10,329 nt of DNA from assembly GCA_002428445.1 (NCBI GenBank), contig DIWJ01000094.1, positions 1 through 10,329 on the forward strand. The letters run 5' to 3'. The stretch comes from Syntrophaceae bacterium UBA6109 (GTDB taxonomy: Bacteria > Desulfobacterota > Syntrophia > Syntrophales > UBA6109). Positions 48 to 10,326 of this stretch are shown piece by piece. The translations under genes and the position numbers were made by a program. The notes beneath the pieces are model-generated. The model was not told where the DNA came from, did not search any database, and worked only from the letters and a program-made list of their open reading frames with translations. Position 1 is the stretch's first letter. Every line of letters starts with the position of its first letter.

Positions 48-2123
48 GTGGGGGGAATCTTGGCCGGAGAGACGGTTCTCGGCATCTGGGACGGTCATGA
101 CGCCGGGGCGGCGCTGCTTCGCGGCGGCGATGTGCTCTTCGCCATCAACGAGGAGCGTCTTTCGCGCCGCAAACTCGACGTCGGCTTCCCCCATCTGTCC
201 ATCGCCGCCTGCCTGAAATTTGCGGGACTGGAAGCTTCGCAGATCCGGACCGTCGCCGCCTCGACGACGGATCCCGCCAAGACGCTGACCCGCCTCTTTC
301 CGTCTCTCAAGGAAGAGTACTACCTGATCCGGCGCCGCAAGAAGCCGCCGCGCCGGCTCGATCCCCTGCGCAAGGCCTTCAAGTACCGATTCACGGAACT
401 GGGGCCGAACTTCCTTTCGCGGGCGCTGAGCCGGGCCCATCTTTCGTCGGTCCTGGAGAAGGCCGGTTTCCGCGACTTTCAGCTCGACCTTGTCGATCAT
501 CACACCGCCCATGCCGCGTCCGCCGCTTTCTGCAGCGGTTTCCCCGAGGCGCTCGTCCTTACCCTCGACGGCGTCGGCGACGGCCTCTCCGGTTCGGCCT
601 GGCAGCTGCGGGACGGCAGCCTCGATCTGCTGAAGGCCTTCCCCGCGAACACCTCGCTCGGCATCTTCTTCGAACACGTGACCAACCTCATGAACATGCG
701 GGAACTGGAAGACGAGGGGAAGGTCATGGCGCTCGCGAACTACGCCTATCCCGTTCCGGACGAGGAGAACCCCCTCATGGGAATCGTCGCGGCCGACGCC
801 GAGGCGCTCGTCTCCCCCTACACGTCGACGGCCATGTTCCGCGAACTCAAGCGGATCATCTGGCGCTACCCCTCGGAGCAATTCGCCTACATGGCGCAGC
901 GCGCGCTGGAGCATTGCGCCCTCGGACTCGTCCGCGGCCTCGCACAGCGGACCGGCGCGCGGCGGATCGCCGCCGCCGGCGGCGTATTTTCCAACATCAA
1001 GATGAACATGGCGATCGCCGCGCTGCCCGGGATCGAACGGATCTACGTCTTCCCGCACATGGGGGACGGGGGCCTCGCCCTCGGCGCCGCGATGGAATCG
1101 AACCGCCGCCGCCACGCCGTATCCTCCTACACCCTCAAGGATCTCTACCTGGGCCCGTCCTTTTCGCAGGCGGAGATAGGAGAAGCGCTGGAGAAGTGCG
1201 GGGCGGACAACCTTGTCACCCCCGCGAAGGCGGGGGGCCAGCGCTCTGATTATGCACCGGGCACGGAAACAAACGCAAAGACCCTGGATTCCCGCTTTCG
1301 CGGGAATGACAAGAGCGATGAACCTTCTGTCGTCCCCGCGAAGGCGGGGACCCAGCTCTCTGGTTACGCGCCCGCCGCGGAAAGCAAAGACTCAAGACCC
1401 TGGATTCCCGCTTTCGCGGGAATGACAGACGAAGGAATGGATTCCCGCCTGCGCGGGAATGACACCCTTCGACAAGCGGCGGGTGACAAGAAGAGTCATT
1501 GCGAGGAGCCCGAAGGGCGACGCGGCAATCTCGCCCCGGAACCCCCTCTGCACGTCAGCCGTCCGGACGACCTGCCCGCCGTCGCGGCGCGCGCCATCCT
1601 CGACGGCGAGATCGTCCTGTGGTTCATGGGGCGCCTGGAAATCGGCCCGCGGGCGCTCGGCGGCCGGAGCATCCTCGCGCGCTCGGACCGCCGGGACGTC
1701 AAGGACCGCCTCAACGTGCTCCTCAAGAAGCGCGTCTGGTACCAGCCCTTCTGCCCCAGCATGGTGATCGAGGATGCGGCGGAACTCCTCTTCACGGAGG
1801 GGCAGGACATCGGCGACAACCGCTTCATGACGATGGCCTTCCGCGTGCGGCAAGATCGATTGCCCCTCATGGAGGGCGTCGTCAATATCGACGGCACCTG
1901 CCGTCCCCACTTCGTCGCGGGGGAGAATCCCCCCTACCGGAAAATGCTGGAACGGATCAAGGCGGAAACGGGTTTCGGCGTCGTGCTGAATACGAGCTTC
2001 AACATCCACGGCGAGCCGATGGTCTGCTCGCCGGCGGAGGCCCTCTTCATGCTCCGGGAGACGGGCATCCGCTATCTCTTTCTGGAGGATCTGCTCGTTG
2101 AGAACCTGGCTGCAAAGGATTGA
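48..2123 (+). CDS. NodU/CmcH/TobZ-family carbamoyltransferase with an in-frame repeat insertion between its two domains
   Basis: Likely transfers a carbamoyl group from carbamoyl phosphate (through carbamoyl-adenylate in this family) to a hydroxyl of a sugar or glycan in the cytoplasm. The N-terminal Kae1/TsaD-like domain (about residues 1-388) shows GIWDGHDAGAAL near the start, the metal-site cluster DHHTAHA (H151, H155), D174 in LTLDGVGDG, GKVMALA, and D340 in HMGDGG. The C-terminal YrdC-like domain (about 501-691) shows GRLEIGPRALGGRS with R535 and R540, then KKRVWYQPFCPS and LNTSFNIHGEP. Residues about 389-500 are not family sequence: they encode two dispersed palindromic repeats, a half arm and a second repeat type, all without a stop. 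Without them the length is about 580 residues, normal for the family. The start is uncertain: GTG at 48 is used, and TTG at 60 would also keep the whole domain. It overlaps the downstream glycosyltransferase gene by 26 bases, so the two are probably translated together. The exact acceptor is unknown. Confidence 0.93.
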   Translation: MGGILAGETVLGIWDGHDAGAALLRGGDVLFAINEERLSRRKLDVGFPHLSIAACLKFAGLEASQIRTVAASTTDPAKTLTRLFPSLKEEYYLIRRRKKPPRRLDPLRKAFKYRFTELGPNFLSRALSRAHLSSVLEKAGFRDFQLDLVDHHTAHAASAAFCSGFPEALVLTLDGVGDGLSGSAWQLRDGSLDLLKAFPANTSLGIFFEHVTNLMNMRELEDEGKVMALANYAYPVPDEENPLMGIVAADAEALVSPYTSTAMFRELKRIIWRYPSEQFAYMAQRALEHCALGLVRGLAQRTGARRIAAAGGVFSNIKMNMAIAALPGIERIYVFPHMGDGGLALGAAMESNRRRHAVSSYTLKDLYLGPSFSQAEIGEALEKCGADNLVTPAKAGGQRSDYAPGTETNAKTLDSRFRGNDKSDEPSVVPAKAGTQLSGYAPAAESKDSRPWIPAFAGMTDEGMDSRLRGNDTLRQAAGDKKSHCEEPEGRRGNLAPEPPLHVSRPDDLPAVAARAILDGEIVLWFMGRLEIGPRALGGRSILARSDRRDVKDRLNVLLKKRVWYQPFCPSMVIEDAAELLFTEGQDIGDNRFMTMAFRVRQDRLPLMEGVVNIDGTCRPHFVAGENPPYRKMLERIKAETGFGVVLNTSFNIHGEPMVCSPAEALFMLRETGIRYLFLEDLLVENLAAKD
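1214..1311 (+). repeat. Dispersed palindromic repeat, full copy inside the carbamoyltransferase gene (copy A)
   Basis: The left arm 1214-1241 begins TGTCACCCCCGCG. A 42-nt spacer follows, then the right arm 1284-1311 with core ATTCCCGCTTTCGCGGGAAT. It is read in frame as VTPAKAGGQ, then DYAP, then LDSRFRGND. Its spacer is 2 nt shorter than the other in-gene copies, which moves the right arm to another reading frame that is also open. Confidence 0.9.
1328..1464 (+). repeat. Dispersed palindromic repeat, full copy plus extra right half arm (copy B) inside the carbamoyltransferase gene
   Basis: Full copy 1328-1427: left arm 1328-1355, 44-nt spacer, right arm 1400-1427. An extra right arm at 1439-1464 follows with an altered loop (CCTG). 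It is read in frame as VVPAKAGTQ, then WIPAFAGMT, then MDSRLRGND. The order full copy plus half arm is the same as in the hydrolase gene. Confidence 0.9.
1495..1530 (+). repeat. Second palindromic repeat family, 36 bp, inside the carbamoyltransferase gene
   Basis: It begins GTCATTGCGAGG and ends CGCGGCAATC around the inner hairpin GCCCGAAGGGC (1508-1518). The outer ends ATTGC and GCAAT also pair. It matches 9538-9573 on the other strand with few differences and is unrelated to the first family, although it sits about 30 bases after it. It is read in frame here as SHCEEPEGRRGN. Confidence 0.85.
2084..2089 (+). promoter_or_regulatory. Ribosome binding site GGAGGA supporting the TTG start at 2098
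   Basis: GGAGGA lies 8 bases before TTG 2098, inside the end of the carbamoyltransferase gene. It is the best-spaced Shine-Dalgarno sequence for the glycosyltransferase gene. It supports the rare TTG start over the next in-frame ATG, about 120 bases later, which would lose the first membrane segment. Confidence 0.7.
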
Positions 2124-3886: not shown

Positions 3887-4004
3887 TGTCGTCCCCGCGC
3901 AGGCGGGGACCCAGCGCTCTACTCTGCTCGGACGTTACAGAAAAAACCAAGGACACTGGATTCCCGCTTTCGCGGGAATGACAGAAAAGAAAACGGGAAT
4001 GACA
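3887..4004 (+). repeat. Dispersed palindromic repeat (copy D) with tail between two convergent genes
   Basis: Left arm 3887-3914 starts 4 bases after the GT-C stop codon. A 41-nt spacer follows, then the right arm 3956-3983 and a tail half stem ACGGGAATGACA at 3993-4004. It fills nearly all of the 148-base gap between the convergent GT-C and O-antigen ligase-like genes. Its hairpins could help end or protect both transcripts, but neither is followed by a clean T-run, so I do not call a terminator. Confidence 0.9.
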
Positions 4005-6198: not shown

Positions 6199-6318
6199 TG
6201 TCGTCCCCGCGTAGGCGGGGACCCAGCTCTCTACTCTACACGGAAGTCACAGAACAAACCCAGGATCCTGGATTCCCGCTTTCGCGGGAATGACAAAAAA
6301 AGAAAACGGGAACGACAC
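6199..6318 (+). repeat. Dispersed palindromic repeat (copy E) with tail, upstream of the O-antigen ligase-like gene
   Basis: Left arm 6199-6226 contains the perfect 8-bp stem GTCCCCGC/GCGGGGAC with a GTAG loop. The spacer is 41 nt and the right arm is 6268-6295. A tail with CGGGAACGACA follows at 6307-6317. The hairpin ends 12 bases before the ligase-like gene's start codon, so it lies in that gene's leader. Confidence 0.9.
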
Positions 6319-6333
6319 ATTAAAGAAACCTTG

Positions 6334-6361
6334 TGTCGTCCCCGCGCAGGCGGGGACCCAG
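6334..6361 (+). repeat. Isolated left half arm just beyond the GIY-YIG stop codon (F)
   Basis: A 28-bp left arm with a GCAG loop and no spacer or right arm of its own. The preceding linker (ATTAAAGAAACC) resembles the linker before copy H, so it looks like the start of an array unit interrupted by the nuclease gene. With the left arm at 6669-6696 it forms a direct repeat around that gene. Confidence 0.9.
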
Positions 6362-6370
6362 AAATCTCTT

Positions 6371-6658
6371 TCAAACGATTTCGCAATATAAATCTTTCCA
6401 TTCGGGATTCTCTTTTTCAATAAGTTCCAGCTTCCATTTCCTGTTCCAATTCTTCAACTGCTTCTCTCTTGCAATGGCATCCACAACATCAGCGTATGCT
6501 TCGTAGTATACAAGGCTGTGAATGTCATATTTTTCCGTGAATCCTTCGGCAAGATTCTCTTTGTGTTCATGGACTCTTTTTCTTAAGTCGCTTGTCACAC
6601 CGACATACAGCGTTCCGTTCCTTTTGCTTGCGAGAATGTAGACGTAATATTGCTTCAT
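6371..6658 (-). CDS. Small GIY-YIG endonuclease embedded in the dispersed repeats
   Basis: A complete 95-residue single-domain GIY-YIG nuclease. It shows YYVYIL (Y5, Y7), LYVGVT (Y18, G20), the arginine helix DLRKRVHEHK (R28, H32), REKQLKNWNRKWK with the metal-binding glutamate E65, and the tail NPEWKDLY. All usual catalytic positions are present, so it should be active. The ATG at 6658 is preceded by GAGAAG as a ribosome binding site. The gene is about 40% GC by eye against about 65% around it, a sign of separate ancestry. It is wrapped in repeats: a left arm (6334-6361) ends 9 bases beyond the stop, and a full copy begins 10 bases upstream of the start. Related stand-alone members are often annotated as UvrC-like or excinuclease ABC subunit C-like, but this is not a repair excinuclease. 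As I recall, a Neisseria branch (Ssn) cuts single-stranded DNA at genome-dispersed repeats; that function here is an inference from context. Confidence 0.93.
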   Translation of the reverse strand: MKQYYVYILASKRNGTLYVGVTSDLRKRVHEHKENLAEGFTEKYDIHSLVYYEAYADVVDAIAREKQLKNWNRKWKLELIEKENPEWKDLYCEIV

Positions 6659-6668
6659 TGCTTCTCGT

Positions 6669-6765
6669 TGTCGTCCCCGCGTAGGCGGGGACCCAGCTCT
6701 CTACTCTGCACGGAAGTCACAGAACAAACCCAAGGCCCTGGATTCCCGCTTTCGCGGGAATGACA
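6669..6765 (+). repeat. Dispersed palindromic repeat (copy G) immediately upstream of the GIY-YIG gene
   Basis: Left arm 6669-6696 with a GTAG loop, 41-nt spacer, right arm 6738-6765. It begins 10 bases from the nuclease start codon, leaving room only for the ribosome binding site. It differs from copy H at one base in 97. Confidence 0.93.
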
Positions 6766-6783: not shown

Positions 6784-6902
6784 TGTCGTCCCCGCGTAGG
6801 CGGGGACCCAGCTCTCTACTCTGCACGGAAGTCACAGACCAAACCCAAGGCCCTGGATTCCCGCTTTCGCGGGAATGACAAAAAGAAAAAACGGGAATGA
6901 CA
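6784..6902 (+). repeat. Dispersed palindromic repeat (copy H) with tail
   Basis: Left arm 6784-6811, 41-nt spacer, right arm 6853-6880, then an A-rich linker and the tail ACGGGAATGACA ending near 6902. Copies G and H with their linkers fill the 266-base gap between the nuclease and hydrolase genes. I see no other gene or clear promoter there. Confidence 0.92.
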
Positions 6903-6931
6903 AATGAGAGTTCGCGTCCGTCTCTCATTTG
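6901..6931 (-). terminator. Candidate hairpin spanning the stop codon of the hydrolase-like gene
   Basis: CAAATGAGAG (6901-6910) pairs perfectly with CTCTCATTTG (6922-6931) around an 11-nt loop. On the minus strand it covers the TGA stop and is followed, 9 bases later, by two T-rich runs opposite 6880-6891. The stem is AT-rich and the T-run is distant, so this is only a weak terminator candidate. It may simply be an inverted duplication at a repeat insertion edge. Confidence 0.35.
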
Positions 6932-9900
6932 CCTCCCGCCGCTTTTATCAGAAATGCCTTCGTTTCGAAAGGCGCGAAGGAGGCGCGGATCACGCCGTCC
7001 TGAACCGGGTAGGCGCCGCTTCCGAAGACTTCCTCGGCGTTTCCATCGTTCGTCTTGTCCTTCCCGCGAAAGCGGGAATCCAGATCCTTTTCTGTTCTTC
7101 CCGCGGAAGCGGGAATCCAGTGTCTTGGGTCTTTGCCTGCCGCATTCGGTGCGTAATCAGAGCGCTGGACCCCCGCCTTCGCGGGGGTGACAGATGGGGG
7201 AAGGACGGCATTCGCCGGCAGCGACATTTCCGCCGAAACGCGGTGGCCGATCGTATTGACGGCGATCAGGAGGCGCTCGCCGTCCTTGGTCCTGAGAGCG
7301 GCCTGCACCGCGGGACGCCCCCTGGGATCGACGCGCCATTCCGAAACCATCTTCACGCTGACCGCGTCCTTGTCGTTGGCCTTCTGAAGCCACGGGTAGA
7401 CGGCATTCAGCCTGCCGGCGACGCGGGCCAGGCGCTCGCGGCCGTCTTCGTTGCGCCCCATGTCCGAAAAGCTGAAGAAGAAGACGCCCCGGCTGCCGTG
7501 GATCACGGAGAGGAAGGCAAGGCAGTCCATCTCCTCCCAGGTGGGCCAGCGTGTCCGCCCCACGGCCGCCTCGTCGCCGCCGCCGAAGGCCTGGATGACG
7601 GAGAGGAGCCGGTCCCGGCCCGTGTCCTGCGCCGCGCGGTCCATGGAATCGGACAGCAGCGTCATCGGCCGGAAGGGGACCGGGTACTGGTCCATCATGA
7701 AGAAATCCGCGGCATCGAGGTAATCGCGGCAGGCCTGCGGGCGGACGACAGCCATGCAGGCCGCGATTTTCGGAAAGCGGTCACGGATCATCCGCCGGAT
7801 GTCATGAGTCCGGCCGATGGGGATGGAGCGCAGCTCCGGCTCGTCCTCAACGTAGAAAGCGGCCTCGTGCTCGGTCAGCTTCAGGTCCGCCAGCCCGTCC
7901 AGGTAGATGCGCAGCCGCTCCGGCTCCTGCGGGACGGAGAGGACGAAGCGCAGCGCCAGCTCCCGGCACTTGCGGACCGTCCGGTGCAGCTCTTCGCCCT
8001 CGTCCCGGAGCAGCACCGTGTTGATCCCGAGACTCCTGATCTGCTCGAGATTGCCGCGGTTTGCCCCCCAGACGCCGAGGGGGAAGAATCCCGCGAAAAG
8101 CTGAGGCGCCGCAGCATCCGGCTTCCGCGGAGAGGGTTCTTCTTTCACAAGCGCGGGCTTTGCCATCCAGAAGGTCTGACCCGGCGCGTCGTTGATGAAG
8201 CGGAACCGGTTTTCGGCCGGAGCAGGCGGGCAGGCGATATGCGCGCGCAGCAGCTGGAAGCTCTTGATGGAGAAGACGTGGTTGTCCAGTTCGAAAGTTT
8301 CTCCCCAGGCGCTGATCCTGGGATAGGAGAGGTTGTCCCAATAGTCGCGGTAGAAAAAGCCCGTGAAGAGGTATTCCTCGCCGGGTTTGCAGGCCGGGAT
8401 CTCCGCACTCCATGCAGCCAGGCCGTCGCGGCTTCCGGTGATGCCCGCGGCGTTGGCAGGGGAGGGGCGGGCCAACTTCGCATCGAGTGTTTCGGCGCTC
8501 TTTATCATTCCGGCGGACGCACTTTTGGCATTCCCGCTTTTCTCTTTGTCATTCCCGCGGAAGCGGGAATCCATGCCTTTGTCTGTCATTCCCGCGGAAG
8601 CGGGAATCCAGAGTCTTGGGTCTTTGTCTGCCGCACCCGGTGCGTAATTAGGGCGCTGGACCCCCGCTTTCGCGGGGGTGACAGAAGAAAGCGCGGGGGT
8701 GACGATAGAGGATGCGGGGGTGACAGAAGAAAGCGCGGGGGTGACAATAGAGGATGCGGGGGTGACAGAAGCAGACGCGGGGACGGCAGAAGGTTCGTTG
8801 GTGTTGTCATTCCCGCGGAAGCGGGAATCCAGTGTCTTCAGGTTTTGTTCCAGTCTTCCGAATCTCCACCCCTCCGGCGCGTTTGCCCCTGCCGTTACGC
8901 GCATCTCGGGGTTCGGCAGCAGGTTCCGCGGCGGCGAGAAGGCCGCCAGCGCCTTCCACATGGCCGCCGGGTCCTTTGCCTTCTGCATCCCGCCGTAATG
9001 GAAAACGAGGATGCCGTCCGCGCCGCCCGTCCCCGCGCCGCGCAGGACCTCTGCGAGCTCGCCGGGATCCGTATCCGCCGACTGCACGATCGGCCAGACC
9101 GCGCAATGGGCCGACTCCTTGAAGTAGGCCGCCGTCTTCTCCACCCAGGCCGGGGGCTCGCCGCACATGCGGTGATAGGCCATGGGCGAGAGGACATCGG
9201 CGAATTCGGAAAGAAACGCCGCGTCCTGCCCCAATCGATAGGACACGTCCGCATTCCTTTCCCCCTTCGTCCATGGGACGACGAAGAGGCCGAGAAGAAG
9301 ATTCCCTTCCTTGTCATTCCCGCGGAAGCGGGAGTCCATGCCTTTGTCTGTCATTCCCGCGGAAGCGGGAATCCAGAGTCTTGAGTCTTTGCTTGCCGCG
9401 GCTGGTGCGTAATCAGGGCGCTGGACCCCCGCTTTCGCGGGGGTGACAATAGAGGATGAGGGGGTGACAGAAGAAAGCGCGGGGGTGACAATAGAGGATG
9501 CGGGGGTGACAGGCTTACCATTGCCGAACGAAGCCGGGATTGCCGCGTCGCCCTTCGGGAGCCTCGCAATGACGGCGGCTTGCATTGCCTCCTTCGCCTC
9601 CCTCACGAACGAGGAGATCTGCCCCTTCTTCCACTTCATCCACTCGTAGGGGTGATGCTTCGCGATCCAGGCGGCGGGGGCGGCATCGAAGGCGCGCCTG
9701 TCGGCGATGCGGATCCGCGTGTCCGCCTGGAATTTCTCGAGGCAGCGCGGGCAGTAGCAGGTGTCCGGCAGGTTCGGCGCGGGCTTTTCCCAGAAGCCGG
9801 GATAGCGGACATAATCCAGGAAGATCCCATCGATATCGGCACCGAAGCGCTGCATGACCGATTCGATCTGGCCGATGCGGTCCCTGCGCCAGCCGGCGTG

Positions 9901-10251
9901 CGAGGGGCACATCCCTTCCTGGCCCTTGTCCTCGGGCGCCGTCCCCAGCAGACGCCCGTCGGCCTTGACGGGCCTTGCGTCCGGGTATTTCTTCCAGCCG
10001 CCGCTGCCGCCGAAGGCGTTCAGGGCGACGAAGACGCGGAAGCCGAGCTTCCGGTAGTGCTTGATGGCATCGCCGTCGGCGGGGACGAAAACGGCGTTCG
10101 CGCCGGCTTCGCGAAGCGTCGGGAACGCGGCGGTCCTTTCCTTCCCCGAGGGGGCCGGGACCCCGTACAGGCCGACGACCGGTGCCGCCGCGGCGGCCGC
10201 CGGAAGGAGGAACAGGCAACAGCAAAGCACGAACGTTCTCAGTCGCTTCAT
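6925..10251 (-). CDS. Exported two-barrel glycoside-hydrolase-like protein with three in-frame repeat insertions
   Basis: A 1108-residue secreted protein, probably acting on or binding a polysaccharide outside the cytoplasm. MKRLRTFVLCCCLFLL followed by an alanine run is a signal peptide. Residues about 25-440 form a TIM-barrel of the glycosyl-hydrolase-like GHL10/DUF4015 kind, with FLDYVRYPGFW (near 143-153), DVLSPMAYHRMCG and a cysteine cluster CYCPRC. Residues about 445-710 look like a jelly-roll carbohydrate-binding module (NLLPNPEM, EGWRF). A second barrel-like domain follows (about 715-990; YVEDEPEL near 800, FFMMDQYPVPF near 850), then a beta-rich C-terminus. Repeats translate at about 225-314, 473-585 and 1020-1066; without them about 860 residues remain. 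Each insertion falls in a loop or linker and no stop results, so the gene is probably still functional. A start at 10290 is possible in frame, but the signal peptide and GGAGGT favour 10251. The substrate is not identifiable. Confidence 0.8.
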   Translation of the reverse strand: MKRLRTFVLCCCLFLLPAAAAAAPVVGLYGVPAPSGKERTAAFPTLREAGANAVFVPADGDAIKHYRKLGFRVFVALNAFGGSGGWKKYPDARPVKADGRLLGTAPEDKGQEGMCPSHAGWRRDRIGQIESVMQRFGADIDGIFLDYVRYPGFWEKPAPNLPDTCYCPRCLEKFQADTRIRIADRRAFDAAPAAWIAKHHPYEWMKWKKGQISSFVREAKEAMQAAVIARLPKGDAAIPASFGNGKPVTPASSIVTPALSSVTPSSSIVTPAKAGVQRPDYAPAAASKDSRLWIPASAGMTDKGMDSRFRGNDKEGNLLLGLFVVPWTKGERNADVSYRLGQDAAFLSEFADVLSPMAYHRMCGEPPAWVEKTAAYFKESAHCAVWPIVQSADTDPGELAEVLRGAGTGGADGILVFHYGGMQKAKDPAAMWKALAAFSPPRNLLPNPEMRVTAGANAPEGWRFGRLEQNLKTLDSRFRGNDNTNEPSAVPASASVTPASSIVTPALSSVTPASSIVTPALSSVTPAKAGVQRPNYAPGAADKDPRLWIPASAGMTDKGMDSRFRGNDKEKSGNAKSASAGMIKSAETLDAKLARPSPANAAGITGSRDGLAAWSAEIPACKPGEEYLFTGFFYRDYWDNLSYPRISAWGETFELDNHVFSIKSFQLLRAHIACPPAPAENRFRFINDAPGQTFWMAKPALVKEEPSPRKPDAAAPQLFAGFFPLGVWGANRGNLEQIRSLGINTVLLRDEGEELHRTVRKCRELALRFVLSVPQEPERLRIYLDGLADLKLTEHEAAFYVEDEPELRSIPIGRTHDIRRMIRDRFPKIAACMAVVRPQACRDYLDAADFFMMDQYPVPFRPMTLLSDSMDRAAQDTGRDRLLSVIQAFGGGDEAAVGRTRWPTWEEMDCLAFLSVIHGSRGVFFFSFSDMGRNEDGRERLARVAGRLNAVYPWLQKANDKDAVSVKMVSEWRVDPRGRPAVQAALRTKDGERLLIAVNTIGHRVSAEMSLPANAVLPPSVTPAKAGVQRSDYAPNAAGKDPRHWIPASAGRTEKDLDSRFRGKDKTNDGNAEEVFGSGAYPVQDGVIRASFAPFETKAFLIKAAGGK
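7056..7192 (-). repeat. Dispersed palindromic repeat plus half arm in the C-terminal domain of the hydrolase-like gene (copy I)
   Basis: On the minus strand: left arm 7192-7165, 44-nt spacer, right arm 7120-7093, then an extra right arm 7083-7056. It is read in frame as VTPAKAGVQ, then WIPASAGRT, then LDSRFRGKD, at about residues 1020-1066, between strands of the C-terminal beta-rich domain. The right arms have diverged slightly at their outer ends. Confidence 0.9.
8547..8683 (-). repeat. Dispersed palindromic repeat plus half arm in the carbohydrate-binding region (copy J)
   Basis: On the minus strand: left arm 8683-8656, 44-nt spacer, right arm 8611-8584, extra right arm 8574-8547, then degenerate tail pieces to about 8510. 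It is read in frame as VTPAKAGVQ, WIPASAGMT and MDSRFRGND. It lies after the 21-bp tandem array in the hydrolase reading direction. Confidence 0.9.
8684..8788 (-). repeat. Tandem array of five 21-bp units derived from the repeat tail
   Basis: Five 21-bp units, each carrying a half stem GCGGGGGTGAC and a linker that alternates between GAAGAAA and ATAGAGG types, giving a 42-bp higher order. The minus strand reads them as the heptapeptides SSIVTPA and LSSVTPA in turn. The array directly abuts the left arm of copy J, so it probably grew from that arm's edge. Confidence 0.9.
8805..8832 (-). repeat. Isolated right half arm at the N-terminal edge of the middle insertion
   Basis: A 28-bp right arm, read on the minus strand as LDSRFRGND. 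It marks the upstream border of the middle insertion in the hydrolase-like gene, so that insertion is bracketed by right arms on both sides. Confidence 0.88.
9312..9448 (-). repeat. Dispersed palindromic repeat plus half arm in the first barrel of the hydrolase-like gene (copy K)
   Basis: On the minus strand: left arm 9448-9421, 44-nt spacer, right arm 9376-9349, extra right arm 9339-9312. It is read in frame as VTPAKAGVQ, WIPASAGMT and MDSRFRGND. Its layout is nearly identical to copy J, so the two probably share a recent source. Confidence 0.9.
9449..9511 (-). repeat. Tandem array of three 21-bp units next to copy K
   Basis: Three units of the same 21-bp type as at 8684-8788, with the same alternation, again abutting the left arm. 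On the minus strand they encode the SSIVTPA and LSSVTPA heptapeptides. Confidence 0.9.
9538..9573 (-). repeat. Second palindromic repeat family, 36 bp, inside the hydrolase-like gene
   Basis: On the minus strand it begins GTCATTGCGAGG and ends CGCGGCAATC, matching 1495-1530 over the same 36 bp. It is read in frame as VIARLPKGDAAI, a different frame from the first copy. It forms the upstream edge of the N-terminal insertion. Confidence 0.85.
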
Positions 10252-10257
10252 GGCAGC

Positions 10258-10263
10258 ACCTCC
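10258..10263 (-). promoter_or_regulatory. Strong ribosome binding site GGAGGT of the hydrolase-like gene
   Basis: On the minus strand GGAGGT lies 6 bases before ATG 10251. It decides the start in favour of the methionine that opens the signal peptide, over the in-frame ATG at 10290, which lies in repeat-derived sequence. Confidence 0.8.
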
Positions 10264-10280
10264 GGTGGCGATTGTCCTCT

Positions 10281-10326
10281 GTCTTGTCATTCCCGCTCCT
10301 TCTCTGTCATTCCCTCTATGTTGAAA
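10281..10326 (-). repeat. Right window-end inverted repeat with repeat-tail fragments
   Basis: Reverse-complement partner of the left end, perfect over 10312-10326. On the minus strand it continues with two tail-like pieces, GAGGGAATGACA and GCGGGAATGACA, about 35 bases upstream of the hydrolase-like gene's start codon. I see no convincing promoter in it. Confidence 0.75.

What the first reader, a model, noticed from the sequence alone, without database searches (positions are those of the whole stretch)
6334..6696. GIY-YIG nuclease gene inserted between two directly repeated left arms of the dispersed element
Left arms at 6334-6361 and 6669-6696 are direct repeats (one base different, loops GCAG and GTAG) with the nuclease gene between them and only 9-10 bases of gap on each side. 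Joining the two arms would remove a 335-bp segment and restore one normal element. The AT-rich gene, its tight fit and its intact catalytic residues suggest that the nuclease and repeat move or are maintained together. The nuclease may cut the repeat hairpins, perhaps as single-stranded DNA, as I recall for the Neisseria Ssn group.
Basis: partly seen in the sequence, partly recalled or inferred. Interest (0 to 1): 0.85.

Follow-up and report, generated by a model that had tools for sequence, protein, structure and literature searches.

The report
Repeat element carrying its own nuclease
A tiny DNA-cutting enzyme gene sits inside a family of short hairpin repeats, and the same pairing recurs in many bacteria with gene-less copies of the site, so the enzyme is probably what spreads or maintains repeats for which an earlier survey found no dedicated enzyme.

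Summary
In detail: two 28-nt arms (27 of 28 identical) flank an intact 95-aa GIY-YIG gene, 9 and 10 bases away. The arms are CGTC-type REPs, which a 2013 survey said lack a dedicated transposase. A tagged arm lies within 100 bp of 56 of 80 homologous genes (both sides in 31; none in 24) and of 28 of 29 in one class, against 18 of 271 control ORFs (both sides in 0) and 0 of 28 other small GIY-YIG genes. Usually the arms are inverted with tails toward the gene, so the gene is the spacer of a head-head REP dimer; the window's direct pair is a minority form. Arm sequence tracks nuclease sequence. Gene-less sites exist in Bradyrhizobium (14 of 30 read), Azospirillum and Sphingobium. Best reading: a REP family with its own GIY-YIG nuclease, moved or maintained together. 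Cleavage of single-stranded DNA (Ssn family) is recalled, not shown. The Ssn paper was not held, so part of the pairing may be in print.

The parts
6371..6658 (-). 95-aa single-domain GIY-YIG nuclease gene
   Evidence: Pfam PF01541 E 7.2e-17; Y18, G20, R28, H32, E65, N84 invariant in an alignment of 27 sequences that includes this one; 40% G+C
6334..6361 (+). solo left REP arm, TGTC-GTCCCCGC-gcag-GCGGGGAC-CCAG; downstream of the gene in gene orientation, tail toward the gene
6669..6696 (+). left REP arm of the dimer upstream of the gene; direct repeat of 6334-6361
6738..6765 (-). right REP arm; in gene orientation the usual upstream arm (TGTC-ATTCCCGC-gaaa-GCGGGAAT-CCAG)
6199..6295 (+). complete head-head REP dimer
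6784..6880 (+). complete head-head REP dimer
3887..3983 (+). complete head-head REP dimer
1328..1427 (+). complete head-head REP dimer inside the carbamoyltransferase ORF

Best explanation
The locus is a CGTC-type REP element that carries its own enzyme. The nuclease gene normally occupies the spacer of a head-head REP dimer (tag-hairpin-tail, gene, tail-hairpin-tag), and nuclease clades tend to have their own arm sequence. Gene-bearing units are gained and lost at sites where relatives have only a dimer, a bare hairpin or nothing. Most likely mechanism (inferred): the nuclease cuts the single-stranded or extruded hairpin of its own family of arms, and host recombination or annealing repairs the break from another copy. 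Gene-bearing copies thus enter gene-less arms (homing-like), and recombination between repeated arms or stems throws the gene out, leaving a dimer or hairpin. In the window the solo left arm plus dimer is such a recombining state. Shown: pairing, covariation, unit boundaries, gene-less sites, junction shapes. Inferred: cleavage of arms, preference for single-stranded DNA, homing.
For: Flanking: 56 of 80 loci with a tagged arm within 100 bp, 31 on both sides, against 18 of 271 and 0 of 271 control ORFs; 28 of 29 loci in a delta class; 0 of 28 other small GIY-YIG genes of the same genomes. Covariation: 37 label changes on the nuclease tree against at least 46 in 300 shuffles; Mantel r -0.40, 0 of 2000 permutations as strong; within Bradyrhizobium 14 against at least 18 in 300 shuffles. 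Unit: of four same-genome pairs at 80% or more DNA identity, three have homology that begins within 2 bases of the upstream tag; L015/L018 (363 bp) ends at the downstream tag and L163/L164 (413 bp) within about 3 bases of it. Gene-less sites: Bradyrhizobium 14 of 30 read, presence and absence needing 11 changes on the flank tree, no fewer than shuffled labels (mean 10.2); Azospirillum sufB-sufC; Sphingobium fnrL site, where two of four gene-less strains read keep one hairpin equal to the collapse of the two arms.
Against: 24 of 80 loci show no tagged arm within 100 bp by the strict rule, and 4 of the 12 plasmid-collection loci likewise; 6 of 28 further Bradyrhizobium loci had no arm by a third detector. 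Genomes without a detected nuclease can hold many repeats (65, 49 and 45 copies), so co-occurrence is only moderate: 44 of 55 against 53 of 94, p 0.003; part of this may be incomplete assemblies. GIY-YIG enzymes hydrolyse DNA and have no strand-transfer step that I know of, so a transposase-like role needs host repair. One of four close same-genome pairs (L170/L171) has homology that does not reach the arms. Tree tests are helped by shared descent. No biochemistry was possible.
Confidence: 0.66

Rival explanations
1. The nuclease is a host-kept modulator of DNA uptake or recombination (as recalled for Neisseria Ssn and its target repeats); the repeats are its dispersed targets, and nearness only reflects linkage of a gene to its sites, not mobility.
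For: A Neisseria gonorrhoeae homologue (57% identity) lies in an array of ATTCCC hairpins, and dRS3 is CGTC-1. The recalled Ssn abstract reports modulation of transformation.
Against: Unit boundaries at the arms, presence and absence turnover at one site (11 changes among 30), a gene between sufB and sufC in A. lipoferum and in none of the 11 other Azospirillum records listed, and broken copies in one genome look like a mobile element.
Confidence: 0.2
2. Nuclease genes and REPs merely accumulate in the same permissive intergenic gaps.
For: REPs and small mobile genes both prefer intergenic space.
Against: 0 of 28 other small GIY-YIG genes; 0 of 271 control ORFs with arms on both sides; orientation bias 25 of 31 and 17 of 18; arm sequence tracks nuclease sequence.
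Confidence: 0.04
3. REPs are moved by another enzyme (RAYT or another transposase), and the nuclease gene is cargo or a homing gene that uses REPs as landing sites.
For: GIY-YIG chemistry alone does not join ends; repeat-rich genomes without a detected nuclease exist; A. lipoferum carries dimer-gene-dimer, like a composite unit.
Against: Di Nocera 2013 found no transposase flanked by CGTC repeats. A different arm for each nuclease clade is expected for the specifying enzyme, not for cargo.
Confidence: 0.1

Closest known systems
CGTC-tagged REPs, CGTC-1 family (Di Nocera et al. 2013, PMC3733652; abstract, passages and one section seen)
   Same: TGTC/CGTC tag, 8-bp stem, 4-nt loop, CCA tail, head-head dimers with spacers of 20-100 nt in most dimers; Neisseria dRS3 and Rickettsia RPE-6 are CGTC-1
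   Different: That paper reports no associated transposase, and 'GIY' has 0 occurrences in it. Here a nuclease gene lies in or next to the dimer. Left arms of the window begin GT, not AT.
Ssn family of site-specific single-stranded nucleases (Chenal et al. 2025, recalled; not held)
   Same: Small single-domain GIY-YIG protein with a dispersed repeat as presumed target; a Neisseria homologue at 57% identity
   Different: As recalled, the stress is on ssDNA cutting and transformation; nesting in REP dimers, unit boundaries and empty sites are described here. Whether that paper also reports them I could not check.
RAYT / TnpA-REP with GTAG REPs (abstract and passages of PMC3733652, passages of PMC6006769)
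   Same: One small enzyme gene acting on hairpin ends, flanked by palindromic repeats of its own specificity, with abundant gene-less dimers
   Different: RAYTs are HUH tyrosine transposases; this is a GIY-YIG nuclease without a known joining step
GIY-YIG homing endonucleases (group I intron type)
   Same: Catalytic domain; homing-like re-entry into cognate sites is proposed here
   Different: No room in 95 aa for an extra DNA-binding domain of that type, and no intron noted; TIGR01453 scores 24.9 bits, below its cut-off of 56

Membership tests
CGTC-1 REP | CGTC or TGTC tag, 8-bp stem, 4-nt loop, CCA tail | tested here: met
   20 arms of the window have this form; the detector asks for tag and tail, and a few further arms of the window depart from it, e.g. 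7056, 7093, 9312
CGTC-1 REP | stem begins with paired A-T, A-T (almost invariable) | tested here: inconclusive
   right arms ATTCCCGC meet it; the six left arms start GTCCCC
CGTC-1 REP | mostly head-head dimers, tags outside | tested here: met
   5 dimers with 41-44 nt spacers in the window; definition
Ssn nuclease family | single GIY-YIG domain of about 95 aa, homologous to the Neisseria protein | tested here: met
   that the Neisseria gene is the published ssn is recalled, not checked
Ssn nuclease family | dispersed repeat near the gene as target | tested here: inconclusive
   nearness met; that it is the target is not tested
Ssn nuclease family | site-specific cleavage of single-stranded DNA only | not testable with these tools
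   needs purified protein
RAYT / REPtron | HUH tyrosine transposase gene | tested here: not met
   Pfam gives GIY-YIG and T5orf172 only
RAYT / REPtron | enzyme gene flanked by its own REPs, with dispersed gene-less copies | tested here: met

The most novel reading that the evidence does not exclude
Palindromic repeats headed by GTC (CGTC REPs, and also the GTCATTGCGA, GTCATCCTGA and GTCATTTCGA types) are miniature forms of a very widespread class of mobile element driven by a GIY-YIG nuclease instead of a transposase, each repeat family with its own nuclease clade, spreading by cutting hairpins and host repair.
Probability: 0.38. Interest if true: 0.9.

Novelty: new variant of a known kind. 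Interest (0 to 1): 0.74.

Why it matters
CGTC REPs (dRS3, RPE and kin) occur in many bacteria, and the 2013 survey left open what makes them. A nuclease gene nested in their dimers, with arms that vary along with it, names the candidate enzyme for each repeat family and makes the question directly testable. It would also offer many nucleases whose target can be read from the flanking arms.

Tried and rejected
Rejected: chance nearness (controls); arms as plain terminators (they are tagged and occur upstream too); an RNA family (no Rfam match at gathering score); a phage gene (11 weak matches among phage records, 10 of them Rhizobium phages); direct left arms as the general design (minority).

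Led nowhere: the window's genome is not held, so there was no census in its own genome and no empty site for this exact locus. A viral-contig scan gave 5 homologues of 46-59% identity, not pursued. No structure was predicted. A Rhizobium plasmid site gave no comparable gene-less record.

Dropped or doubled before counts: one search removed ten duplicate places but left one (L053 = L126); one search repeats the counts without it. In one search six same-place rows and six loci without a label were left out, two mis-framed rows (L202, L210) stayed in, and dimers with two arm types got one label. In one search the 100% pair L129_1/L129_2 is one overlapping stretch and is not counted. The 28 control GIY-YIG genes are chosen from the weak matches (E 5e-22 to 8e-11); pieces of split copies and one match at a contig end were left out. 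My notebook gave 17 and 13 for the Bradyrhizobium sites; recounting one search gives 16 with gene and 14 without, used here.

Full report
What is there. The window (63% G+C) holds a 95-codon gene on the minus strand, 6371-6658, with 40% G+C and an intact GIY-YIG domain. It lies between two copies of a 28-nt hairpin arm that differ at one base, 9 and 10 bases away. The arm belongs to a dispersed element present as five complete dimers (left arm TGTC-GTCCCCGC-N4-GCGGGGAC-CCAG, spacer 41-44 nt, right arm CTGG-ATTCCCGC-tttc-GCGGGAAT-GACA) plus the solo left arm beside the gene. Joining the two left arms yields a normal dimer.

What the repeat is. Tag TGTC, 8-bp stem, 4-nt loop, CCA tail and head-head dimers match the CGTC-1 REPs of Di Nocera et al. 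2013 (PMC3733652; abstract, passages and one section seen). [quoted passage not shown] In the window the left arms begin GT rather than AT, a small departure.

Is the pairing general? The protein has thousands of homologues (7,995 of the 7,999 candidates scored). In 12 loci from the plasmid collection, 11 had a hairpin within 200 bp of the gene, with different stems in different hosts; L005 had none. By the strict tag rule 8 of these 12 have an arm within 100 bp, 7 of them on both sides. One scan of representative genomes kept the best 80 of 580 relatives, from more than ten phyla by record title. A tagged arm lies within 100 bp in 56 of 80, on both sides in 31; 24 have none. Of 271 other ORFs of 100 aa or more in the same loci, 18 have an arm on one side and 0 on both. 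Among the 29 loci newly delivered for a class of deltaproteobacteria, 28 have an arm and 18 have arms on both sides. As a second control, 28 other small GIY-YIG genes from the same genomes have none within 100 bp (0 of 28). Of two-sided loci, 25 of 31 and 17 of 18 have the arms inverted with tails toward the gene: the gene is the spacer of a head-head dimer. The window's direct pair is a minority form, but its outer tags (6334 and 6765) make the usual arrangement too.

Does the arm follow the enzyme? With a relaxed detector 115 of 124 distinct nuclease places had an arm-like inverted repeat within 160 bp, 74 on both sides, against 60 of 252 and 6 of 252 control ORFs. Labelled by the first six stem bases, arms change 37 times on the nuclease tree against 46 or more in 300 shuffles (94 rows with labels held by three or more; one search gives the same with one doubled row). 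Protein identity and stem mismatch correlate at r = -0.40, 0 of 2000 permutations as strong (one doubled row included). Within Bradyrhizobium, where deep host kinship is removed, labels change 14 times against 18 or more in 300 shuffles (35 rows, two of them mis-framed; 6 of 28 loci outside the studied site had no arm by that detector). More distant paralogues have other GTCAT-headed repeats nearby: 8 of 18 within 150 bp, against 14 of 439 control ORFs, or 1 of 19 in the same loci. Neighbours on a tree can share arms by descent, which weakens these tests.

Is it a mobile unit? Of four same-genome pairs at 80% or more DNA identity, three have homology that begins within 2 bases of the upstream tag: L015/L018 (81% over 363 bp, ending at the downstream tag), L163/L164 (88% over 413 bp, ending within about 3 bases of it) and L123/L124 (82% over 339 bp). 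The fourth, L170/L171 (83% over 319 bp), does not reach its degenerate arms. One genome (G049) gave ten matches, which are about six copies, at least three of them broken, plus two of the weak kind used as controls.

Gene-less sites. (1) Bradyrhizobium: the gene left of the site was found in 98 of 98 genomes searched; the 30 best-scoring loci were read. Sixteen carry the nuclease: 11 between two dimers in direct repeat (some arms degenerate), 4 with another nuclease version between simple inverted arms, and 1 hybrid. Fourteen lack it: 5 have exactly one dimer of the first kind, 1 has a bare, imperfect hairpin of the second kind, 3 have another dimer, 5 have no tagged arm. On a tree of the flanks presence and absence need 11 changes, no fewer than 200 shuffles (mean 10.2, minimum 6), so turnover is fast, or flanks and site recombine. 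(2) Azospirillum: A. lipoferum has dimer-gene-dimer between sufB and sufC; the 11 other Azospirillum records listed (23 Azospirillum records matched in all) cover only 67-70% of the query, and the three read have neither gene nor repeat. (3) Sphingobium: seven listed plasmid records are filled and five are shorter; of the four short ones read, two keep one bare hairpin with tags at both ends (one of them imperfect), which is what the two arms become if they collapse between their repeated stems, and two have no such hairpin.

Co-occurrence. Among 149 genomes of the delta class the commonest arm pattern occurs in 44 of 55 genomes with a nuclease (E up to 1e-20) and 53 of 94 without (p 0.003); for the closer subfamily 34 of 37 (p 4e-5). 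The genome with most copies (65) has no detected nuclease. Repeats can therefore persist, or be acquired, without a resident enzyme, or the assemblies are incomplete. In Bradyrhizobium 95 of 98 genomes have a homologue and 86 of 98 the type-A arm, so that genus is uninformative on this point.

Mechanism. Shown: pairing, orientation, covariation, unit ends, presence and absence at one site, and the shape of gene-less junctions. Recalled, not shown: the Neisseria Ssn protein cuts single-stranded DNA at a repeat. Inferred: the enzyme cuts hairpins of its own family and host repair copies gene-bearing units into gene-less arms, while recombination between repeated arms removes the gene. This explains re-use of one site by two nuclease versions, the hybrid, the direct repeats, and why no joining enzyme is needed. 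The insertion in A. lipoferum, at a place where the relatives read show no repeat, would need either lost repeats or true new insertion.

Novelty. Word searches of the held library: GIY-YIG with 'repetitive extragenic palindromic' gave 0 papers; Ssn terms gave 0, 0 and 4 unrelated papers. Wider searches held GIY-YIG with REP words in 80, 110 and 60 papers, of which only 25, 15 and 20 were listed; no listed title links the two, and neither do the 7 titles. The Ssn paper itself is not held, so part of the pairing may be published there. I rate it a new variant of a known kind: it works like RAYT with GTAG REPs, but with a different enzyme.

Noticed in passing
window 1207-1530: A REP cluster lies in frame inside the carbamoyltransferase ORF (48-2123), between its N and C domains; about 112 residues more than a solved relative at that point. 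This resembles Rickettsia RPE insertions.
   Followed up: partly
window 7052-7197, 8522-8851, 9304-9530: Several REP clusters read in frame through the 1121-aa ORF 6925-10290 (minus strand), which has only a sub-threshold glycosyl-hydrolase-like Pfam match.
   Followed up: partly
window 8672-8810 and 9437-9533: Tandem 21-bp units holding GCGGGGGTGACA, the outer half of a right arm, in the same ORF.
   Followed up: no
window 1495-1533 and 9535-9573: A second dispersed family, GTCATTGCGAGG...GCAATCTC; elsewhere nuclease paralogues L140 and L142 sit beside repeats of this type.
   Followed up: partly
L168-L173 (G049, Nitrospiraceae record): About six nuclease copies in one genome, at least three with stops or split, with varied arms.
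   Followed up: partly
L005 2001-2285: Planktothrix plasmid homologue lies between an MmeI-like restriction gene and DISARM drmA; only imperfect repeats of the GTCATCCTGA/GTCATTCTGA type were found near it.
   Followed up: no
L310 near 900-1320: The Sphingobium TomTYG73 copy looks frameshifted and is not annotated as a gene; intact copies exist in sister strains.
   Followed up: no
G267, G293, G232 (delta class): Genomes with 65, 49 and 45 exact arm copies but no nuclease detected at E up to 1e-20.
   Followed up: no
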